Shown here piece after piece: positions 10,887 to 56,800 of a DNA stretch of 64,000 bases. Position 1 is the stretch's first letter. Every line of letters begins with the position of its first letter. The stretch is taken from positions 1 to 64,000 of the forward strand of contig NW_020312082.1 in the NCBI RefSeq assembly GCF_002999335.1. The letters are read 5' to 3'. A model generated the notes under the pieces. That model made no database searches and had not been told where the DNA came from. It saw nothing but the letters and a program-made list of their open reading frames with translations. The position numbers and the translations under genes are program-made. This DNA is from Cyclospora cayetanensis (lineage: Eukaryota; Apicomplexa; Conoidasida; Eucoccidiorida; Eimeriidae).

Positions 10887-13800
10887 ATGGATGTACATCA
10901 TCTGTCTGGAGACCCCTTACACTCCCCTTTTTGCGGAGTGCCCCAGGGGGTCCAGCAAAATTGGGATGTTCCAGCCACTAACGTGGACGCCGAGGGTCTC
11001 GCTGGCATCGCAGTGACAGCATCAGTAGTAGAGATCGGGTCAGACTCGCCAATTAAGGGTCTAGATCCATTAGTGTCAGAAGTATGCGGGCGGCCCCTTG
11101 AGAGGGTTCCCATAGTTCGTATATATGGACCCTGGGGCACGGGGGGTCCTCAATGTTGCCTCCACTTGCATGGCCTATTTCCATACTTTTATGTCCCGGC
11201 CCCCCCAGAGGCATATGGAGAGGGGGCTTCTGGATTTCTTCGTCGCTTTGCTCGGTGTCTAGTGTTGCAGGCAGACTTCCTCCTGGCCTCGAAGGCAGGA
11301 GGTGCCAGGCACCCTGGCTGTCGAAAGGGGGCTTCTATACGTGGCATTGGGGTCCCCAAGCCTGGAGATCCAGTTGGCTGGGATGGGATAGGAAAGAGTA
11401 AAGGGGCGCCCAAGGGGGGCCCGCTTGTGTATAGGATCGAGGTAGTAAGGCCTACTCCCTTTTACGGGTATCACAGGGAGCTTTATGCCTTCCTGAAAAT
11501 ATACTTGACTGCACCGGATATGGTGGGACCCCTCGCTGGGCTGCTTCTGCAAGGAGCTGTCACAGGGAGTCCTCTGCAGCCCTACGAGGTTCACCTAAAC
11601 TTCCAAGTAAGGTTGTGTATGTGCTTTCCCCCCATTGTTATCCTTTTCGAGCGGTCTTCAATTCCTTTATGACATCTGCCGCTCTCCCTGCTAGCTTTTG
11701 TTCTTGTTGTGTCAATCTGTTGCTCTCTTCCCCTCAGAAGTTAATGTATGATTTGGAATACACCCACATTTGTGTCTCGGACGTATTCCTTCGTGCGTCT
11801 GCTAATTTGCTCTTTGAAACTGCCATATTTTAAGCTTCTTCATCTTGCTTTCTGTGTTTCTGCCTTCGTGTATGTCCTTCCGTAGACTCAGGTTTTCGCC
11901 GATTTGCATTTAAGGGGGATGTCCCCGGTATTTGTGCAGAAGCCCTATTTCCGGACTCCGGTTCTCCTTGACCCTCTTATTGCCGCAGGGGTTCATAAGG
12001 GACCCCACAGTTCTCCTCTCAAGGCTCATTGCGGGGGCCCTTACTACAGAGGACACCTGAGAATCTCCAGGGAGGGAGAGAAGGGGCCCTTAGGCCACAG
12101 TACAGTCCAAGGCGTGCATCGTCATTCTGTTTTGGGTATGCTCGGGGAGGGGGCTGTTAGGACCTTTACTGCTTTAGGCTGGGGGCAACTGCTGCACCAG
12201 ATAAGTCAGGTGGAGCAGGCAAGTGCAGCAGCAACAGCAGCACCACACAGTGCAACCGATGAACAAGGAAAAGCACACAGCAGCAAGATTGAGAATCCTA
12301 CTGGCCTGTTATGCGAAAAGATCCTACAAGCCCTGCCCCCTGAAGGACCTGAAGGCTTGCGACTGCTGAAGGTCCCCCGATATAGCAAGTGCATGATAGA
12401 AGTGGACGCACGGATGGATCAGGTTTTGAACCCTATTGTTGCCGCTGAAAAAGCGAAGTCAACAGCAGCAGTATCAGCAGCCGTAGAGCAGCAGCGGTCT
12501 GGTCGCATGGAGAACGAATCGCCGAGTCCAATCTCAGTAGGTACACCCAGCAGCATTGCTAGTGCCAACGTGTTTTTAGCTCAATTGGTAGGCAGTGTTG
12601 CCGATTACTGGAGAGAAGAAACAGCAAGGGCATCTGCGTGGGGATTGCCGCCTCCATCTGCAAATGGTTCGGGGTCTCAGGAAGGCCTTCGGGACCCCCA
12701 AGGAGCTCCCGCTCCTGAATTATGGAGAACAGCACTCGAAAATATCATTAGGCGAGTTCACGAATGGCAAGAGCGGCAGCAAGACGGTGGGAAACCATTT
12801 CCACTGCAAGGTATCACCTGTCAGAGTCATTTAGAACAGAAGCAACAGGAGCAGCGCCGCTCACGAGACATTGACTATTCTCTGCTGAAGACATGGGAGG
12901 CATCGGAGCTGTCAGAGACTTCAGATTCCGACTCCGCGTCCATCGGAAGGAGCCCAAGATATCCAAGGGCATGTGTAGCTCCAAAGCCTCCCGAAGAGGA
13001 TTCCCAAGTTGCAGGCGAGGGGACCCCACATTGGCAAGAGAAGGTGACCTTGGATCCGCTTATGTCGTCAAAAGGACGGCCACTTGTTCATGGGCTCTGC
13101 AGTAGCCAAGATTCAGTGGAGGCTGCACGGCTGCTAGTTCAAGCGACGCCTCCTTCCCAAAGGCCCCCTGTCGGCATAGTGCCGCCTGCAGAGCTTCCAC
13201 TTGAGGCCACTGATGACCTTCTCGGCATCGAGGTACGCAGCAGAAGCGCTTTTGGAGCACCAGAGGCAGCAGCAAGTATAGCGAAAATGGGGACAATGCA
13301 GATATACTACGTGCATGACGTACAAAACCAGTAACGATTGAACCACCTGCAACATCAGGTAGCTTCTAAGAGCACGGCATGCTAAGCTGTGCATTGGCTG
13401 CGAATGCTTTTCTGCTTTTTCAGGACCTTAAAGACGAGGAATTTTCTTTGCTTCTTGCATCCCATGGCACTGTGACTCACAGTGACGTAGATAACCCTAT
13501 GCGAGCACCTGGCCTTGGGGAGATTCCCGATGCAAATTCAGTAGAGCGGCAAGTTGCTTCTGATGAAAGCAGCGCAGACTCCAGCAACAGCAGAAGCCCC
13601 ATCACGTCAAAGAAGCAAGAGGGCCCGCGGAAAGTGTTTTGTGCTTTTAATCGGAAAAGGGGTTCCACAGCCGAGCCGAGGTATAGTATTGGCAGTTGTG
13701 CGCAGTGCAGAAGCTGCATGTGTAGGTGCTGTGCACCGTGCAATAAGGGCAAGCAATGTGTATCAGATATGGAGGATATTCTGCAGGTGTGCGATACAAC

Positions 13801-44238: not shown

Positions 44239-45122
44239 TTAAAAATGATAAAGCAAAGTGCTTAATCTCAACGTGTCCACAATATTCGCCCGTAGCTCCT
44301 TTGTGTGCACAGGAGGAAAGTTAAGAAGGTGCAATATTCGTAGGGTTAAGGCTAACTCTACCGGAGGAATGCCTAATGCCATGCTGATCCTGCTCTGTAC
44401 TACCGGTGTTTCGTACAGAACCTGGAAACAGTTGGCAAGGACTGGGACAGCGTACCGCATGAGATTAAGGATGGCAGCATACGCATATAGGTCTAACTTT
44501 TGGGTAAGTTACTTGGTGGCGGGCTTATTACAGCCTTCTAGGCAGCTGTTTATCTTGGGTGTCAGCTTGAGGATCACTTGATGTCCAGGAAAAGTCACCT
44601 TTGCACCCAACGGAGAAACTTGTCCCTTTGTCTTAAAAGCTTAACTTTTCGTATTTGTGCTGACATCACACACAATGCGACTTAATAATCCTGGCCTTAT
44701 ATCAAGTTTTTTCTGACTGAATGGGTAGGCACGCGTACAGATATTCTACTATTACCTGCAGTGTGCACGAATTATTAGCAAAGTAGGCCACAAAGTTTCT
44801 CATCTCAAAAACGGCATACTGAATCAGCATTGTCGTACGTTCTGTGGTGTATCTTTTAAGAGTGGTCATCGGTAATCTCTCCCAAGGAGCTGTAGGATCA
44901 TTAAAGGCTTAATCTTAGATGCGGTGGTTGCTGATAGGGAAGGCAGTAGGGCCGAGCACACTGGTGATATCGTCATAATTATCATATAAAAAAGTGAAGA
45001 AAACGCTGGAATGCTCCACTAGACCCTGGTGGCATCCGCTTGAGGATACTCTTGAGATGCGGCCCAAGGCATCGCAGGTAACGCTTCCACAACTATCTAG
45101 CAAACAGGCAGCGTCTTGAGGC
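44239..45122 (-). CDS. Candidate two-exon minus-strand gene, unknown
   Basis: One exon candidate (45122-44915) follows a CAGTTTTCAG acceptor and reads PQDAACLLDSCGSVTCDALG and later FFTFLYDNYDDITSVLG. A second (44421-44239) follows a good acceptor (CCAACTGTTTCCAG) and reads VVQSRISMALGIPPVELALT then LRILHLLNFPPVHTKELR to a stop at 44239. Both look like real protein but each ends in its own stop, so they may be alternative last exons or belong to different genes. The head-to-head neighbour is the calpain-like gene starting at about 45.2 kb on the other strand. Confidence 0.3.
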
Positions 45123-45241
45123 CTGAAAACTGGGAGGTAGAACAGCATCAGTGAAAGAAACAATGAAACGGAGAGTCAATGCCACTAGCTGATGCTGCAT
45201 TACGATCTCTCTGGGCCTCTGAATCTGTCTGTAGAATTCAG

Positions 45242-48200
45242 GGCTCAAGGGGGACGACGGCCTCTATGAGGACGCTGAGTTTCCTGGAAATCCACCTGTT
45301 CCATCGTTAAAGCCTCCTGTAAGTTTTTAGTAAGCAGTGCCGACAGCTTTATGTTAGGCTGCAAAATGGATTACGTACCTGCACTTATGCAAGAGTGTTC
45401 CTGTGTGTTCTTTGTGTAGGGGAGTGAAGGGGAACCCCCAGGCATTTTAAAGGGGCTGCTCTGGAGGCGGCCTGACGAAATCGTATTTTCCATGCAGCAT
45501 CAACAAGCCAAGTCTCATCAGACATCTCGATTGCAGCAGCAACAACGAAATTCTGCACAGGAGCAGCTGTTTTCGCAGCCCCATGCAGAGAGGCGGGCAA
45601 TTTTGTTCAACAGCAGCAGACCTGCTTCCACTGTCGTTCAAGGGCTGCTGCCATCGCACGCATTTGCTGCTGCTGCTAGCGGCCTAGCCATTTCACACCC
45701 TCTAGCTATCAGAGAGGCTTTGATACACCCACAGCATTGGCGGTATATGAAGCCAAAGCACAGAGACCACGACGGCTGGCAGCTGGCTTAGCGGAGATTA
45801 GCCATAGGCTGCCACACTACAGTCGGTGGCAGAACGACTGCTTGCTGCATACTGCTTCTTCTAATAAGCATAGTGAGTGTGCAGAGAAAAACGATAGCAT
45901 ATACATTCATTGCTGCTGTGGGGGGGCTCTTGTGTCTCGATTCAGAGCGCGTGGCTTGTTCTGCGTAGCCTTCTTCCGGTCAGGGGAAAGAGAAGTGGTG
46001 TGCATAGACACCCGATTGCCCTGCCGCCGCTCGCAACAGCTCAAAGAGCACAACAGACAGTCTCGTCGGTCAACCAAGGGAAGCAGCTCTGAGGCACGAA
46101 AGTCGCGGAGCAGTAACGGAAAAGGCACATTATTGAGAGCAGCGCCTTTGAAGGAATGCCCTCCTAATTGCGCCACTTCGGCAGCGCTGCAGATTCAAGA
46201 GGGCAACTCTCAGCTCTGCTCGAGCAAACGTATATCTTCAGTAAGCCCAAATAGCGAAAATGGCTACCGATGCACTCTGGACAGTACAGAGGCACAAGCG
46301 GACGCCACGGACTCGCTCATAGAATTCGCGTGAGCTTTGCCACCCCTAGTATTTCCTCACCACACTGCGGGCCTCGAGAGTGGTTTTGCGACAATATATC
46401 TAAACACAGAAACCGTTGTATACCGTCCGAAATTTCCTGCGTCGCATTCAAGGCTAGCAAGCGGAAGTACCCACTTCGCGTGATATAACAGCATATATTC
46501 TTTGCTCGAATTTTTTTTTCTCACGGACAGATTCACTCACTGCCACGCTTTCGAGGAAGTATGGCTACCTCTCCTGGAAAAGGCTTATGCCAAGTTCCTC
46601 GGTTCTTATGAGGCTGTAGCACAAAGGTGAGCCTTAAGCCTTAAACAATAAATGGTAAGCATTATACAGGAACAGGCTTTACTAAGCGTGTGTGACATCT
46701 GTGCAAGGATTCAGGAGCTTCCGGGATATACTTGTCGACTTGACAGGAGGCGTTGGTCCGCCCACACAAGGACACCAAGGGCTTTACATCCCAGCCTCCA
46801 GTTTCTGACCCAAACTATAGTGTCACGTGCTGTCCACGGAAGCGTTTCGCTTTAAATCGTATGCTTCAGTCTTTCTTGTGCATCTGCTCAGTTGAGGAAG
46901 TGGAGGTCGCGTGCTTTGACGCTCCTGTGCTGTGGGCCAAACTAAGGAAGTGCGCTGACGGTGTCCCCTATGTATCTACGCAGGTCTTCTGAATGAAAAC
47001 CTGTTGGCAAATACCAGTAGTGCCAAATGCATGCATTTTTGCATATAATTAAGATAGTGGAGCCTATAGAGTCATTTCTCAACGTGCATGCAAATGTGTC
47101 TGTCAATAAGCGTGCATCCACATATTCTTCCAGCCAACCAATATTACCTTCTCTCAATGCCGAACCCGAGTAGTATTTACACATATTTAGATGTAGACTC
47201 CTAAGGTCAATTTGTTTGCTCTTTACCGTGTATGGGCTTTATCGGCGTCTACAACAATGTACAGCTACATGAATAAAGCACACCCGGTGAAGCGCACAAC
47301 GAAAGAAAATAGTGAATGCTGCACACACGAATGTTACTTCTAGGACTATATGCACAAGGCACAGAAGCCGGTACTCCTGCGTACACTTACACGTGCATAC
47401 ACATAGATGCAACGAATACATGAAAAGGCACATGTCTTGTTGGTGTTGTATTGCTGTTTACTGTAGGGCCTTCTGCACTGGGGGATGTTTTATAAGCAGC
47501 ATTGCCAGGGGCACAGCCACAGAAAAAGAAATACTCTCCAACAGGCAATATACCGTTGTCGATGTCGTACGGGTATGCAAACACAAAACTTCCAACCCTC
47601 TACCACAAAATCTTGTCCTGACATCTAGTCTTTGTACAGCCTGTCTGCAGGCCTCGCCCACTCATTGAGGCATTTGGCAATAAGGGCAGCACAAGTGCAG
47701 ACTTCAATGCCGTTCGTATCACAGTCAATGCCAATTTAAAGCACCCGCATCTGCTAAATGTTGGCTCTAGTTGGGAAATCTTTAGATTCATTTGGCACAC
47801 CCATGGCTTTGTAGGTTGAAGAACTGCGGCTAGTGCGGCTACACAACCCCTGGAAGGTCCCCACTTGGCGAGGAGAATTTTCTGATTATCATCGGTCCTG
47901 GACTCAGTATCCAGGTGCTTTATTACATCATAAACCACACATTCTGGCACTGTTGAATCTAAACCATCCATGAGCTGTAACTTCGGAGACTAGCAAGTCA
48001 TGACTGCGAAATGGTGATGGTATAAACTGATACAGTGTGTATGGCTGATGCACTCTCTGCAACAGCGCAGCAGGACCAAGACAATAAGCAGTCTGGAGAA
48101 GGAACCCACGGCCTTTTCGAATGGTATCTGGTCCGGTGTCCCTGTTTTGTCCTGTCTCTGGCCGCCAGACCTGAAAGAGAGGCTAAACTACAAGTTTGGA

Positions 48201-51200
48201 GATGCTCCAGCAGCATTTTGGATGAAGTTTGAGTCCTTTCTGGAGAATTTCACAGACATACTCTTTTGCTATTTTCTGCCCTCCGAGAAAAAAATCCCCC
48301 TTTCCCAGCTCAAGGAGCTGCCCACGTCCATCTCACCGGCTGCTGCAGCTGTGCGAATCCACGAGGGTTTCAACTCTGCTGCCGTAGCATCGAAGCAGAC
48401 TGCGGATTCGGAAGGAAACACGTGAGCTTCCATAAAGCCTTAAAACAGCAACAACCACTAGTCCTGTCTGCCGAATGGCAGTTTAGCATGGCGGGTGAGC
48501 GGTACGGGAGAATTTCTACATGATTCTAGAATTGTTGTTGCGAACACAGCAAGCTAGCCAGATCCACAACTGGAGATATTGAAGTTCTGCGCAATCAAGG
48601 ACTTGCTGCTTTGTACGTGACAGTGCATAGAGCCACTTGGAGTGGCTTGTCTCTCTGCGGTCTACCACGGGACTGGAATAGGCAACAGGCAGCAGCAGGA
48701 GCTACCGCCCTACAGCCATTAGCTCTATGCACACTACAGCAAGGACAAAGGCTTTCTGGTAGAATCAGGGAGAGCAGCTCCACCATGGTCAACAAGCAAC
48801 ATACGATTTCAACGGGAGTCCTATCTAAGGGGCCTTTCCCGGCTTGGCGAGTACGGTACTCGCAACCCGCGCAAACAGCAGATATCGCCAAAATCAGGAA
48901 GAGCCACACCCCTCTGCAGTCCTCTGCAGCGAAGAGTGCTGCTGCAGCTGCTCCTTTTTGTGTTGATGCCGTAGTCAATGGCAGGCTAGAAGTTTCCTGC
49001 GAAAATTTCGGCAGCGGGGCTACAAAACCAGCAGTCGTACCACAGTGCAACAGGACCACACCTGCATGCGCGGAATACACAGTTGTCAGCCGCCCCTCCG
49101 CTTTGGTCAGGTACGAATACCAAGCTGAGGGATTTGATATGGCGTGGGTAAACGCTCCAATGTTCCTCGTTTCTTTTCCTGAACCTTCATCTGTCACTAA
49201 TGCTTCGCACAAGCACCAGGAGGCGAGGATTAATGAATCGCAGCAAAGCCACCCGCTGTCCCAGGAAACACGGCCAGCTTTGCAGGAAGCTTTCCTCTCC
49301 ATAACGCAGAGCAGCGCTCTTGATGTGGCTCCAATCAGCATGGCAGTCTTTCACGCACGGGTAAACCCAGATACACACAGGCGCTTGAAGCTGATACCCA
49401 ACCACCGGGTTCAATGGACGTCGTGTGCATCCCTACGTGGATGTGGGATTTTCATGTTCTAACAATGGGAGAAAGTAAAAAAACCCAAGTTATGGGATAG
49501 AATGGTCTTTTGCTGCTCAGGAATGCCGCCGCATCTGGTCATTCTCGGATGCAAAGCTTGTGGGAGTGTCTCAAGCAGTGGCGGATGGTGAGAGACCGGC
49601 AAGCCAGGAGCCATGGAAGGGAGGCGGCTGCTGCATGGCTAGTTGCATGCAGGGTCTTTTAATAGGGGCTCCTGAACCTCGAGGGGCCTGGAGAGATAGC
49701 TGCTTAAGACTGGGATTTGTGGGGGAGGCCGAGGGAGATTGCGTAAAGAGCACCAGACGACTGCTCGTAGTTTGTTACCAAAACGTTCCAGCCGAGAGCA
49801 GCAGTTTACGCCCCAACGACTTCATTTTCCGCACCTTTAGCTCATGCCCCGTAAGCTGAAAAGGCTATATTCGAATGGGGAGTTTTCGAACTGTCATGTG
49901 CACCACTGCAAATCGGCGTTGTACTGAATCGCTGCAGTGTTCATAGAGGAGAGAGCATCTGTACCATAGCATGCGTACAGAAATATTGCGAGACGTTACT
50001 GGATTCCTCTGTTGGTCATGCCTCCACTGCCTCTTCACGGGTGCTTGCAGATGCACGTCGAGCAGCTTCCGCCCCCAAAACATTATCAATTATCAGGTGC
50101 ATGGACACCGGACTCCGCAGGTCAGCCTCCAACCCCTTAATTCATAAAAAGTTCTTGGTTTAGTCCTTTTTTGCGTGGAATAAATTCAAAGTGTCTTTGA
50201 GGAGCTTTTCCGAACTTGTTAAAAACCCCTCCTCACAAATCACTTTCTCATTGGCTCTTCTGGCGAGCTATGCTGCTGTTCACATTGTAGCTGGTGTTTT
50301 GGACTCCTTTAGGCGGCAGACTGTTGACACCGGGCCCTCGAAAGTGCTTTGTTTTTAATACGAAGTGGTCAACAAACCCACAATTCGCTCTTTATGCAAA
50401 CCCAAGGTGGACTGAAGCGACGACCTGCAGGCCCGGTTAAAGCAGGATATACAACTTTTGAGCTTAATGCTGATTAGCTCGAACATCAAACTAGAAAATT
50501 ATTGGGCTACTCGTGTGTGCTGGAGGTTCCAGTCGTAGTGGTGTTGCGCTTATGCCAGAAAAAGAGTGCCTCGACCACTGTGGAAGGGGGCTTGTGTTTG
50601 AGTGACGGTGTCAACTCTCCATGTTCAAGGTACCCTGAAACAACAGTGTGCATATCTGTAATACGGCAGGAAGCAAAAACAAAAACCGAACAGCACCTTT
50701 CCGTGAGGCTTGGGTTTCCTTAAGCAAGTTTTGGGAGAAGTGCAAGTAATTAGTTTGTGGTTCCTCCTGTCTTAGCACTGTATTTCTGTGTTTGCAGCAA
50801 CGAGCTTCACCTGTGGTGCTACTGTTGGGCACAAGCTAGCTCGTTGGATGTATTTGCACTCAGCCAGTAAATCAGTAGTAGCTGAACTGTCGTTATTACC
50901 AGTACCGTGGCAATCAGGTTCTGTTCTGTTCTGCGGTTGTGGGTGCTGTTGCGCTAGGTAGGTTTAGTGGCAACGCGATTGAGGGATTCGACAAACCCAG
51001 AGGCAATGGAAGACACAGCTTCTTCGAACTCTCAACATACGCAGTAACACTTAACTGATCTAATGTAATGATCCCTAACTTATTTCTACTGGCCAGCTCT
51101 GCAGATTGTCAAGCTGGACTTACAAAACCGGCTGTGAACCCAGGTTCAGGACGCAGAGTATACAGCCATAGTGTAAAAAGACTCGCACTGCTTCTTCTCA

Positions 51201-53317
51201 GTTTGTCTCGCAAGACAGCCATGAGAATGTGTGGTTACGCTCTACTCGCAGAACTAACTGGTTTGGAGCCGGCTCTGAAGCACCTCAACCTGAATTGAAT
51301 CGGAAGTTGACAGTCAGCTAACAATACCTTGCTACCTCTCCGTCCTAAAGCCAGATAGCCTGCTAACGCGTCCAGGGCTGCTGGAGCGGTGACGTTCAGC
51401 TCACATCTAGCTTGTAGCTCGTTCTTCGTGCAGATCGAGGCCGATGAGTGGTTCGTTGAAGCCGTCGGGAACGAGCAGTGCTGCATCAAACTCACGATTC
51501 TCAAGGGATCCGTGAGCCAGGTTTACCTATATCGCTGAGGAAAGCGAATTCATGGGTGTAGAAAACAGTGAATATATGCGAGTTTGTGGATCTGCGATTC
51601 CGTTTGTATTATTGCGATTGCTCTCCGTGCGGGTTGTCTCTCATACTCCATAGCCCTGTTGGTTGCATGCGTCTGCAAATTGTGGATTGGAACGTATCTT
51701 GGCCCTTCTTTGCAGGGCCCCCTTATAGTATCTCCATGCTTAGAGGTAGGAGGTGCAACTGGAGCCTTTGTCCTGAACGTGTTCAGCGACTTGCCTCTCG
51801 AGGTACCGAACGAACAAGTACCCCGCTTAGGTTGTTCGCGCTACAGTGTTTGGCATGGCCGACGCAAACAGTTCAGACTGACACGTTTCCCCTGTGTATA
51901 TGTGTCAGAACTATGCGTTCTCCTCCAAGCTGTACCAGAACACTGTAATCTAGAGCCCAATTCCTAGTTTTGAATGCCTTCGGTGGTTTTTGTTGCAGAG
52001 ACTTGAAGCCCTTGACTACGAGCACTACAGAACGCTAATTGGTCAATGGGAGCTTGAAACAGCTGGGGGAAGCCACAACTTCCCTGAGCTGCTCGCAACC
52101 CCTAATGGCCTCCAAAATAAAACAGGTAGGGGAGTTGGTTTTAGGCGAGAGCAGCTCTGTTCTGGGTGTGGTTTCCATATTTTTATCATTTGCTGGTCCG
52201 AGCATCATGTGTAACTGTCCTATGGTTGTGCCTGAAACCTCACGGTACCCCGTAAACTCTTTGCCTATTTGTCCATCCAGTTCCACTCCGGAAAAAAGGC
52301 AAAGCGCAGCCTGTTACGTGTCCCTTACCGCTTATTGGCACAAAGAGGGTCCCGCGTGGATGGGTGTCTAACCCGCAGTACCTTCTATCAGTAGCTGAGA
52401 CAGTTCAAGTTGGCATTACCTTGGCCAGGCATGACGACTGCTGGGGAATTCAAAAGGAGCAGGTTTGAAACTAGAGACTCAAATATTGAATCCATAAATA
52501 AATGTCCCATCACATGAAGGATGTCTGCTACAATGCAACTCACGCGTCAGTATCCAGGGTTCGGGATAAGGTATTAGCGCGCAGGGGATACCATGGGTTG
52601 CCGTCTTCAATTAAGTACTGAGATGTGCTGCAGGATATGGCGGGATGCATGATGGGACTTTACGTCTTTCGGGGAAGGAATGTTTGTATGGAGAATCTGG
52701 TCCAACAGACGGATTTTGTGGTGTGTTGCAGCGCTGTGCTTGTCTTGTGTTTCGGGGAGTATTCAGTAGTAGATTTTCTTTCCCGATAAGTGGGTATGCG
52801 GCTTGCATCTTGGAAAAAGCATGGGTTCACGTACAGCTGTGCTGGGGATTAGATACAACCATGCTCGCACATTTCATTACATGTCCCTCAAGCTCTGGGT
52901 CATAAAGTTTTGGCCTTGGGGATGGCGCCAGTTTCGACTCTCTGTGTCTGCGAGTCGATCAGCTTGGAAATGAAGTTTCACTCTCAGTTTTATTTGTCTG
53001 CCCACCCAGAAAGTCCGAGGAGTATGTCGTGATGCCCACAACCTGGAAGGTTTGTTAACACGAACTTGATCTTTGGCAAGTTCGTATATTTAGTATTGCA
53101 CTTAGGGCAATTCGTAACAGTGGAGAACAGATAATAGGATGGCAAAATTATATTACGATGCATTTACTGTACATAATGAAGTGTGGTTTCGTCTTTGCAG
53201 CCAGGAAAGACAGGAGAATTTCTCTTGCGCTTCTGTGGCCCACTAAATAAAATCTCCATTTCTGCACCCAGGAGTGGGGGGGAATCCATGGGCACTGAAC
53301 CCTCGATTAACGCATAA
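45242..53317 (+). CDS. Calpain-like protein with two calpain-III domains, predicted catalytically dead
   Basis: Papain-fold calpain core followed by tandem C2-like domains, as in CAPN7. Exons placed: 45242-45318, 45420-~45749, ~45798-46329, 46531-46626, 46715-46800, 46892-46983, 47467-47572, 47815-47914, 48169-48421, 48550-49360, 49521-49850, 50051-50120, 50313-50406, 51434-51511, 51716-51802, 51999-52125, ~52348-52462, 52634-, 52908-53049, 53201-53317. Landmarks: GLYEDAEFPG and LLWRRPDEI (pre-catalytic), VVQGLLPSHAFAAAASG (Cys helix), VAFFRSGEREVVCIDTRLPC, EVWLPLLEKAYAKFLGSYEA, DILVDLTGGVG, RLHNPWKVPTWRGEFSD (Asn site), AAFWMKFESFLENFTDI; then calpain-III pairs WTPDSAGGRLL...WSTNPQF and WELETAGG...WVSNPQYLL, ending EYVVMPTTWKPGKTGEF. 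The Cys is His (45657-45659) and the His position reads NRQY instead of GHAY. The N-terminus before 45242 was not found, and four junctions are unresolved (45.75, 46.98-47.47, 50.4-51.4, 52.1-52.3 kb). There is a Gln/Ser-rich insertion in the catalytic core. Confidence 0.8.
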
Positions 53318-53899: not shown

Positions 53900-56800
53900 T
53901 TACTGTGTCCACACACAGAAGTTGTGACCGAAGGATGCGATGAGCCAATTTCCCGGTCCAGGGTGCCAGTCTAGCCATCCGATCTTTATCGCCACACTTG
54001 CACTGTGGGGGTGGCACCAGCGGTCCTTGGGTGAGATGTACGCCGCATACAGCCCATGTTTTGCCCTACGTAGTCACAAGCACCTGAAAATGATACGGGC
54101 TAGCCTTCAATGTACAATTACCAAATGGGGGGACCTAGGGGTTGGCAATATGGTTTGCGTACAGGCAGGATGATGAACTGTGAAACTGACAGGTGTTGAG
54201 CTATAAGTGCTTTTTTGCAAACATCCTGGTGAAAGCCTTTGGGCCAGAGGGTTGAGGTCTGCAGGGTTTAGCACTTACGTAGCCATGTAGATGCCGCTGG
54301 TGCTGTGGATCCCCATGGAAGTTCTTACGTCGCAAAGCTCTTGTAGCTTTTGTCTGCGACAGCGACATAGCCCCTGGCCCTCCTTACTGAGTTTTAAGCT
54401 TGTGATTTCCTTTTTTTGCGGATTAGCGCTTGGATTCAATTTGTGGCTTCATGCTTGGGACCTTCTATTTTCCTACCGACAATATGGGCCATAATCTGAG
54501 TAGTGGTTCCAGTAGATGCAAGGAACTCCCGGGTGCGTGAGAATGACCGCGTAACCTTGCAGCTGGAGAGATACCCACATTCTGTCAGTGAACTCGTAAG
54601 CTGATATGATTAGGGTTAAAAGGGGGAGAATTCCGTTGTACTGGGCATCCGGCATTAGGATTTAGCCGTGAGTGCCGGGGCTTAGATTTAAGATTAGAGA
54701 TTACAACTCCGTCAAGCTCCCCGTTGCAGAAGGTACGGCAGTACTCCAGGTGATCGGTATCATGGTTTTCAATAAAGGTAACGGCGAGCTGCGGTTCCTG
54801 CAGTGCATGGGTCGGAACACATCACACGAGATGCTCACTCGCTTAATTGTATTCCTGCTCAATGCTGAAAGCATAAATTCGTTTGCATCCTACTCGATGG
54901 ATCCCCCGCTGGGTAGGCATACGGTATAAACTCCGCAAGCTCGCGTTATTTTTGAGGTCTTCTCCGCATGTCAGCTAAATGGCTGTTTACTTTCCTGCTT
55001 TTGACCTGCGCTTGTGCCCATTCAGTTGTGTCGGACTTTCTTTCCCCTTTTTGCCCGTGTTTCCGTTCTTTATCTCTGCGCACTTAATTTCAAGTTGTAT
55101 CTTTTTCTATGTGCTCTGATATCCCTTCCTTGCTGTGCTTTTGTTCTGCCGGTTGGTCGATAATGTCTGTCATAACTTTGTACTGCTACAGTGGTTGTCG
55201 TTTTGCCTGCAATCTATGTACATGCTTTTCTCTTCCCTGTTCTGCTAGTATAATCATTCTCCCATGTCGTGACATATCTAAGTATGTGTGTCTTTAACTA
55301 TCTTTTGTATCTGATATCCGTGCGCTCTCTCTTGGCTGCTTCTTGTCAGCCTTTTTCACTGTCGACCCAAGCCTGTGTGTCTGTCCTTACTATGCCGACG
55401 AGACCGTTGAGATTTCCGCAGGCATTAAGAATGCCGAAGTCGCCTGTTTCTACTGCGCGTTGCAGATGATAGTAAAATGCAAAGTCAAAGGCAGCCAGAG
55501 AGCCCCCAGCGGCTCTGACGTAGTTCACAAGAGCCCGTGTATCGCCATGCCAATACTCCCCTACCGTGAACGGCCGACCCAGGTGCTCCACAAAGGCTTG
55601 CTGCGAATCGCACATGAAAACGACTATCAAGTAAAAGCTAGCTTGAGGCTCTTGCATAAGCGGTTTAAGCTTGAGGTATCGGGAATTCCTTCTTGCCTGG
55701 TACTGGGGGGCGTAGCCACCGGCCATGTCAATTCTGAACGCAAGGTATCCGACGTCTCGCATGAGCCACTGGGTCCAGAGCTTCATGTCTCGTTGCACTT
55801 GAGGGTTTGTATGGTCAAGATCCGGTGCGCAATCCACGCTCACGCCGGTGTCTTTGCCTCCTTCCCCATGGTAGCCCTGCAGGTTGTTGCATACCACCGC
55901 CCAAGGGCCCCAGTCAGGAGCTTCAAAAATTGTCCAGTGCCCCCGGCTGTCTTGCCGCGTGCCACATCGGTGGTTGGCCACCAAGTCAACGCAGCAAGCC
56001 AACCCTGATTCCCGAGCGGTTCGAATCAGATGTTGCAGCTCCGCTGCCGTCCCGTAATGACTGTTCAACGAGTACCTGGACGCAAACTTGACAGACCCCA
56101 TAGAAGCAGCGGTAGGGGTGGCTACGGAAAAAGGGACAGAGAGGGAGCGTATCGTTATGCCAAGATAAGCAAAACATGAAGTGGGGCGTAGACAGGAAGT
56201 AAATAGAACAAAAGACTTAAACAAGGCAGTGCCACAGTAGTAGCTGAGGTAGAAACGAGGGCCTAGGCAGAGTCACAATCGTAAACATATGCAGATCGTT
56301 ATCAGCAATCGTAACACCGGCAACACTGAGAACCAGTACCATCTGGTGGGCATGTATCCTTCCAATCCAACACATTCTGTGGGTGGAGGACACCAAATTA
56401 TGGAAACTCCAAGCCGTTTTATGTCCTCAAGTTTGCTGCAAAGAACGTTGTACCAGCCTGTGGGATTCTGTGCGCTGACCCAATTAAACCCCTGCAGCAT
56501 TATATGCCCCTTCCCATCGTCTAGTCGAGGTCCTTCCAGTCGCGTTTCAGCACGAGCGTCCAACGGGTCGCTGTGAAGTCCCTCAACTGCAGCCGGCAAA
56601 AATATCCTAAAGAAGCCGTTGCTTCTGCTGTAATCGATGTTGCTCTTTCCTTCATTGTAGTCCGGAGGAGGCAAATCGTGCCATGCGGAAACAGTGTAGC
56701 GGTGGGTGTCGCCTTTCGTTACTGCCACGTCAGTGTATTTGTGTTCCTGGGGTCCCACAGCTGGCAAAAATGCAATGGGGACCCCGTCTTTATACACCCG

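What the first reader, a model, noticed from the sequence alone, without database searches (positions are those of the whole stretch)
45420..47914. Calpain core with both catalytic Cys and His positions substituted (pseudoprotease)
In the helix where active calpains read QGxLGDCWFLAA, this gene reads QGLLPSHAFAAAA, so Cys aligns with His. The usual GHAYSV block reads NRQYTV, so His aligns with Arg. The Asn block (RLHNPW) and the structural landmarks around it are intact, and both calpain-III domains are complete. That pattern fits a conserved fold with lost proteolysis, as in mammalian CAPN6 and several trypanosomatid calpain-like proteins, and points to a scaffold or regulatory role.
Basis: partly seen in the sequence, partly recalled or inferred. 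Interest (0 to 1): 0.8.

Follow-up and report, generated by a model that had tools for sequence, protein, structure and literature searches.

The report
Ancient protease-dead calpain in coccidian parasites
This parasite gene keeps the shape of a calpain protease but has lost the two residues that do the cutting, and the relatives found in other coccidia, a free-living algal cousin and brown algae have lost the key cysteine as well, so it is probably a long-kept structural or binding protein rather than an enzyme.

Summary
The window gene (95% identical to Cyclospora cayetanensis LOC34618146) rebuilds as one open 24-exon frame, 45057-53317, 1251 aa. The catalytic Cys position is His (codon 45657-45659), the His position Arg (47543-47545); Asn is kept (47845-47847). 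A six-frame scan found no canonical Cys or His block on the gene's strand nearby.

The loss is conserved. Of nine proteins grouped by tree, 0 of 8 that cover the position have Cys: His in Cyclospora, Eimeria praecox and E. brunetti, Leu in E. stiedai, Arg in Vitrella, Thr in two stramenopile rows, Ala in Tribonema. All 4 coccidia that cover the His position have Arg. Core blocks are 69-93% identical to Eimeria, neighbouring loops 19-37%.

Corrections: the calpain-III-type modules, apparently three, lie outside the given coordinates, and an intact paralogue sits on another contig.

Pseudo-calpains are known in protists, so the kind is not new. What looks new is a group with shared Cys loss across coccidia, Vitrella and (92-95% bootstrap) ochrophytes. 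A scaffold role, perhaps cytoskeletal, is inferred, not shown.

The parts
45057..53317 (+). whole gene model, 24 exons, 1251 aa (N-terminus taken from the deposited model, may be longer)
   Evidence: single open frame over 24 exons; orthologue-guided joins
45235..45318 (+). exon 2: start of CysPc (GLYEDAEFP)
   Evidence: Eimeria and Vitrella counterparts
45420..45742 (+). exon 3: WRRPDEI block and the Cys helix VQGLLPSHAFAAA
45657..45659 (+). codon for His at the catalytic Cys position
45946..46329 (+). exon 4: core strands ARGLFCVAFFRSGEREVVCIDTRLP, then a poorly conserved loop insert of about 100 aa
46531..46949 (+). exons 5-7 (46531-46626, 46715-46755, 46892-46949): EVWLPLLEKAYAKFLGSYEA, SFRDILVDLTGGV, VEEVEVACFDAPVLWAKLRK; exons 6 and 7 are missing from deposited model P0001
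   Evidence: P0004 and P0043 match all three
47467..47572 (+). exon 8: LSNRQYTVVDVVR, the block that holds the catalytic His in active calpains
47543..47545 (+). codon for Arg at the catalytic His position
47815..47914 (+). exon 9: LVRLHNPWKVPTWRGEFSDYHRSW, catalytic Asn kept (codon 47845-47847)
48169..48421 (+). exon 10: end of CysPc (DLKERLNYKFG..AAFWMKFESF)
   Evidence: sub-threshold PF00648 match of the frame alone
48550..49850 (+). exons 11-12: degenerate first C2L-type module with low-complexity inserts (TWSGLSLCGLPRDW ... AWVNAPMFLVS ... LLVVCYQN)
   Evidence: orthologue matches; no Pfam match of its two frames alone
50051..51802 (+). exons 13-19: second C2L-type module (YQLSGAWTPDSAGGRLL ... 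KWSTNPQFALYA ... GPLIVSPCLEVGGATGAFVLNVFSD)
   Evidence: low-confidence model of the E. brunetti counterpart resembles calpain domain III
51999..53317 (+). exons 20-24: third C2L-type module, ending ..SINA stop
   Evidence: PF01067 residues 1119-1224 of the full model, E 1e-8

Best explanation
The gene encodes a conserved, proteolytically dead calpain. SHOWN by sequence: the Cys nucleophile and the His general base are replaced while the calpain fold and the Asn/Trp landmarks are kept, and every member of the orthologous group in hand that covers the site lacks the Cys, with different letters in different lineages (H, L, R, T, A). INFERRED: the CysPc domain has become a binding surface, held together with C-terminal C2L modules, and the protein works as a scaffold, most likely on the microtubule or membrane cytoskeleton. 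T. brucei CAP5.5 (subpellicular microtubules), mammalian CAPN6 (microtubule stabilising) and calpain-like ciliary proteins (ADGB, FAP42) are the working analogies. Likelihoods: catalytically dead 0.95; conserved non-enzymatic protein-binding role 0.8; cytoskeletal site 0.4.
Against: No activity, expression or localisation data. A review notes that triad substitutions do not always abolish calpain activity (PMC7912814 passage). The fold model has mean pLDDT 63.6 and covers only the PC1 lobe. The cytoskeletal site rests on analogy with pseudo-calpains whose orthology was not tested. Calcium-ligand columns do not help: the intact paralogue lacks them as well. Toxoplasma, Plasmodium and ciliates were not sampled.
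Confidence: 0.75

Rival explanations
1. Non-catalytic regulator or decoy of the intact calpain in the same cell: it binds the active paralogue or its substrates and inhibits or directs it.
For: An intact paralogue exists in the same genome. The Gln six before the Cys and the Trp of NPW are kept in Cyclospora.
Against: The paralogue does not group with it in the tree, though its own branch is long (1.84) and its place unsure; no interaction data.
Confidence: 0.15
2. Axonemal protein of the flagellated male gamete, in the manner of the calpain-like ciliary proteins ADGB and FAP42.
Against: The structural matches are weak, and unrelated beta-sandwich entries score as high or higher for the C-terminal model. 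No ciliary chain is in the sequence listings at E up to 10. Chain names are not printed by the tool, so FAP42 there is an inference.
Confidence: 0.2
3. Altered catalysis: His in place of Cys and Arg in place of His form a new active site.
For: Both substitutions put polar residues at the catalytic positions.
Against: E. stiedai has Leu, Vitrella Arg, stramenopiles Thr and Ala at the Cys position, so no chemistry is conserved.
Confidence: 0.02
4. A decaying pseudogene or an assembly or splicing artefact.
For: The two deposited Cyclospora models differ from each other and from mine.
Against: 24 exons open in frame; proteins from three Eimeria species share the altered Cys block and two of them the altered His block; core 69-93% identical while loops are 19-37%.
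Confidence: 0.03

Closest known systems
CysPc-C2L(n) non-classical calpains of protists (types 3-6 of Zhao et al. 2012, PMC3563603; outline, sections 6 and 10 and passages seen)
   Same: CysPc followed by tandem C2L modules; in Ectocarpus, Emiliania and trypanosomatids more than half of the variants lack triad residues
   Different: the word Toxoplasma does not occur in the main text and no coccidian group is singled out in the parts I saw; here a defined group across coccidia, Vitrella and ochrophytes lacks Cys in all 8 members covered
CAP5.5 and other trypanosomatid calpain-like proteins (PMC7912814, passages)
   Same: calpain-related, triad residues lost in T. brucei, no proteolytic activity reported, needed for the subpellicular microtubule corset
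   Different: separate lineage, some with kinetoplastid-specific domains; orthology not tested here
Mammalian CAPN6 (as described in PMC3563603, section 10)
   Same: Cys replaced (by Lys), microtubule-stabilising, no need of proteolysis
   Different: an animal CAPN5/6 gene; CAPN6 itself was not in my tree, where the window gene does not group with animal calpains
Androglobin and FAP42, ciliary central apparatus (PMC8175508 passages; androglobin Cys loss in a PMC4631099 passage)
   Same: calpain-like domain in a ciliary structural setting
   Different: androglobin carries a globin domain, not reported here; no ciliary chain in the sequence listings
Intact paralogue of the same genome (contig C330; CAPN7-like by recall) and E. 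tenella calpain ETH_00004075 (PMC3770453 passages)
   Same: same superfamily; an intron at the corresponding place and phase after LHR/LRK (aligned by eye)
   Different: intact triad GDCSF / RHAYSV / KNPWG; elsewhere in the tree on a long branch

Membership tests
Calpain superfamily (CysPc, PF00648) | match to the CysPc domain above the curated cut-off | tested here: met
   PF00648 142.4 bits, E 2.1e-41, two stretches, cut-off 23.8; a profile with four relatives matches solved calpains, best E 1.5e-58
Calpain superfamily (CysPc, PF00648) | C2L / calpain domain III downstream | tested here: met
Active calpain protease (MEROPS C2 peptidase) | catalytic Cys | tested here: not met
   His in Cyclospora; 0 of 8 group members that cover the position have Cys
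Active calpain protease (MEROPS C2 peptidase) | catalytic His | tested here: not met
   Arg in 4 of 4 coccidia that cover the position; kept in Vitrella and two stramenopile rows, Ala in Tribonema
Active calpain protease (MEROPS C2 peptidase) | catalytic Asn | tested here: met
   LHNPW; 7 of 8 group members that cover it, Ser in Tribonema
Pseudo-calpain (non-peptidase C2 homologue) | conserved fold with triad residue(s) lost | tested here: met
Pseudo-calpain (non-peptidase C2 homologue) | absence of proteolytic activity | not testable with these tools
   needs a protein assay
CAPN7 / PalB | N-terminal MIT domain | tested here: inconclusive
   none reported on the model or on E. stiedai P0003, but the Cyclospora N-terminus may be incomplete
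CAPN7 / PalB | groups with CAPN7 in a tree | tested here: inconclusive
   no named CAPN7 was in the tree; the paralogue that is CAPN7-like by recall groups elsewhere on a long branch
Androglobin | permuted globin domain | tested here: not met
   only PF00648 and PF01067 listed at E up to 10
Cytoskeletal scaffold like CAP5.5 or CAPN6 | microtubule or cytoskeleton association | not testable with these tools
   no localisation data in hand

The most novel reading that the evidence does not exclude
A single calpain gene lost its nucleophile before alveolates and stramenopiles separated, or came to the apicomplexan line with an ochrophyte-derived plastid, and has been kept since as a non-enzymatic structural protein. 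Coccidia later lost the general base too. It would be among the oldest traceable pseudoproteases, with the steps of decay readable in living species.
Probability: 0.5. Interest if true: 0.62.

Novelty: new member of a known kind. Interest (0 to 1): 0.45.

Why it matters
Public records label these proteins 'calpain family cysteine' or 'Calpain-1 catalytic subunit, related', so they can be counted as proteases and as targets of calpain inhibitors, which by sequence they almost certainly are not. If the shared Cys loss is ancestral, the group gives an ordered series (Vitrella and brown alga: Cys gone, His kept; coccidia: both gone) for how an enzyme fold is turned into a structural part. It also points to an undescribed conserved component of coccidian cells.

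Tried and rejected
Alternative GDCW exon: a degenerate DNA pattern gave 33 matches with 1-2 mismatches against 31.2 expected, none exact. A six-frame scan for canonical motifs found none on the + strand between 44 and 54 kb; it cannot see a motif split by an intron.

CAPN7 identity: nothing ties the gene to CAPN7, but no named CAPN7 core was compared, so this stays open. Androglobin: no globin listed. Ciliary chains: weak fold matches only, none in the sequence listings. NCBIfam: nothing.

First exon-6 donor gave residues that no Eimeria protein has; I replaced it by a donor that fits the orthologues. The queries used the first version.

A paper lists three T. gondii calpain-type genes (PMC3634991 passages), not compared here. 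The searches started from a protease-dead query, so active members of the group could be missed.

Results against the reading: the group with ochrophytes is starred in one tree (95/85) but not in the second (92/88). AU tests of three named alternatives gave p 0.030, 0.077 and 0.064, so two of three are not rejected at 0.05. In the C-terminal test the stramenopile members P0008 and P0015 score only 34.3 and 23.9 bits; their models end early. Besnoitia is much less like Cyclospora than Eimeria is: 64% in the second half of PC1, 45% in PC2; its 12% in the Cys region is meaningless because that exon is missing. Calcium-site columns: Thr at the D106-equivalent in 4 of 4 Eimeriidae and Thr at the E302-equivalent in 3 of 3, but the intact paralogue has Ser and Arg there, so I draw nothing from them; one column (E185) was misplaced by one and is not used. 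The C-terminal model has mean pLDDT 46, and its top Foldseek row is a plant virus capsid at rmsd 21.

Rows dropped: of 54 proteins, 40 plus two own models were aligned; four rows were left out of the first tree and eight more of the second. In the loop and PC2 identity ranges I left out rows with 1 or 8 aligned residues.

Full report
WHAT IS THERE. The window lies in a 43.2 Mb, 392-contig genome. The gene product is 95% identical to the annotated Cyclospora cayetanensis protein LOC34618146 (P0001), so the species is almost certainly C. cayetanensis. I rebuilt the gene from reading frames and splice sites and corrected it with Eimeria proteins. The result is 24 exons with 23 GT-AG junctions, 45057-53317 on the + strand, 1251 aa with one stop at the end. 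The N-terminus follows the deposited model and may be incomplete. The deposited model skips exons 46715-46755 and 46892-46949 and runs into intron sequence near its end; Eimeria proteins support both exons.

ACTIVE SITE. In a 42-row alignment the column of the catalytic Cys holds His in the window gene (codon 45657-45659), the His column holds Arg (47543-47545) and the Asn column Asn (47845-47847). The intact paralogue on contig C330 of the same genome, CAPN7-like by recall, reads C, H and N in those columns. A six-frame scan found no canonical GDC[W/S]-like or GHAY-like block on the gene's strand between 44 and 54 kb, and a degenerate DNA pattern occurs about as often as chance (33 against 31.2). 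A family search of the genome lists five CysPc matches at three places: C330, C333 and this gene.

CONSERVATION OF THE LOSS. Protein searches returned orthologues from Eimeria stiedai, E. praecox, E. brunetti and Besnoitia besnoiti, a second E. brunetti fragment and the free-living chromerid Vitrella brassicaformis, and stramenopile proteins from the brown alga Pylaiella, an unnamed eukprot entry close to it, and Tribonema. At the Cys column 0 of 8 that cover it have Cys: H, L, H, H, R, T, T, A for Cyclospora, E. stiedai, E. praecox, E. brunetti, Vitrella, eukprot, Pylaiella, Tribonema. Besnoitia is not counted because its model lacks the exon. At the His column 4 of 4 coccidia covered (Cyclospora, E. 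stiedai, E. praecox, Besnoitia) have Arg, while Vitrella, Pylaiella and the eukprot entry keep His and Tribonema has Ala. Asn is kept in 7 of 8; Tribonema has Ser.

TREE. With the three catalytic columns removed, coccidia form a clade (99/85), Vitrella is their sister (100/99), and the three stramenopile proteins join them (95/85). After removing eight long or odd rows, coccidia+Vitrella stays at 100/99 and the larger group falls to 92/88; forcing three alternative placements gave AU p of 0.030, 0.077 and 0.064. The wider group is therefore likely, not certain. A second test uses the C-terminal 367 residues of an E. brunetti fragment, which contain none of the CysPc domain, against the other 53 proteins: Vitrella scores 148 bits and Pylaiella 95.5; next come Besnoitia (cut short) at 43.5 and the best outside row at 39.7. 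The other two stramenopile members, whose models end early, score 34.3 and 23.9. The direct comparison with Pylaiella runs over 390 columns, E 4e-24, with Vitrella over 355, E 4e-41. The searches started from a protease-dead query, so active members of the group could have been missed.

CONSTRAINT. Between Cyclospora and Eimeria the Cys-helix region is 69-71% identical, the second half of PC1 87-93% and PC2 72-78%. The inserted loop is 25-37% and the linker after the core 19-20% identical (rows with 1 or 8 aligned residues left out). A gene in decay would not show this contrast. Besnoitia is further off: 64% and 45% in the second half of PC1 and in PC2. Calcium-ligand columns are replaced in Eimeriidae (Thr at the D106- and E302-equivalents; residue numbers recalled), but the intact paralogue lacks them too, so they say nothing about loss of function.

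HOW IT MOST LIKELY WORKS. Shown: a kept calpain fold without nucleophile or general base, with no conserved replacement chemistry. Inferred: the protein binds partners through the CysPc surface and the C2L modules and acts as a scaffold. Analogies are T. brucei CAP5.5, needed for the subpellicular microtubule corset, with no proteolytic activity reported for T. brucei calpains (PMC7912814, passages); CAPN6 as microtubule stabiliser (PMC3563603 section 10); and calpain-like domains in ciliary ADGB and FAP42 (PMC8175508, passages). Chains of a ciliary C1 central apparatus structure are the next fold matches after the calpains, weakly (E 0.083). I put the chance of a cytoskeletal site at 0.4.

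WHAT IS KNOWN. Pseudo-calpains are a known kind: 29 of 267 homologues in one survey are non-peptidase (PMC4631099, passage), and more than half of the variants in Ectocarpus, Emiliania and trypanosomatids lack triad residues (PMC3563603, section 10). An E. tenella protease survey lists one calpain; its printed forward primer, as I translate it, encodes DCSFL, so it is an intact calpain and not this gene (PMC3770453, passages). I saw no paper on this gene in the listings of searches for calpain with Toxoplasma/pseudoprotease (15 of 175 listed), apicomplexan/Eimeria (15 of 53), conoid (10 of 12), 'calpain family cysteine protease' with Toxoplasma (4 of 4), Vitrella/Chromera (8 of 50), pseudoprotease with apicomplexan (8 of 10) and Cyclospora cayetanensis (4 of 4). 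Most subscription papers are not held, and supplements were not searched.

VERDICT. The kind is known; the orthogroup and its likely ancestral Cys loss seem undescribed in what I could search. Interest 0.45.

Noticed in passing
L007 (contig C333), 3153-5567, - strand: A third calpain-like gene in this genome: PF00648 match E 5.5e-6. By eye GPFGRWLHGIFGF stands where the C330 paralogue has GFVGDCSFLSS, so its Cys may be lost too.
   Followed up: partly
L001 / L006 (contig C330): Intact calpain with C, H and N all present, CAPN7-like by recall; an intron after QLHR at the same place and phase as one in the window gene (by eye).
   Followed up: partly
45057-53317: Deposited Cyclospora models P0001 and P0002 skip core exons, and P0001 runs into intron sequence near its end; P0002 is named 'calpain family cysteine', and the E. 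praecox protein 'Calpain-1 catalytic subunit, related'.
   Followed up: yes
P0024 (Astrephomene), P0032, P0033, P0042, P0047 (Polarella): Other protist calpain-like proteins lack triad residues: at the Cys column Gly, Gln, Arg and Ser in P0024, P0032, P0033 and P0047. P0033 and P0042 have an NRAY block (His to Arg) like the coccidia; P0033 does not group with them and P0042 was not in the tree.
   Followed up: partly
10887-11669 (+): N-terminal domain of a DNA polymerase delta/zeta-type catalytic subunit (PF24055 E 1.1e-11, PF24065 REV3_N E 4.1e-5 below cut-off).
   Followed up: no
55349-56272 (-): Alpha-amylase domain (PF00128 E 4.9e-14), on the other strand just downstream of the calpain gene.
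   Followed up: no
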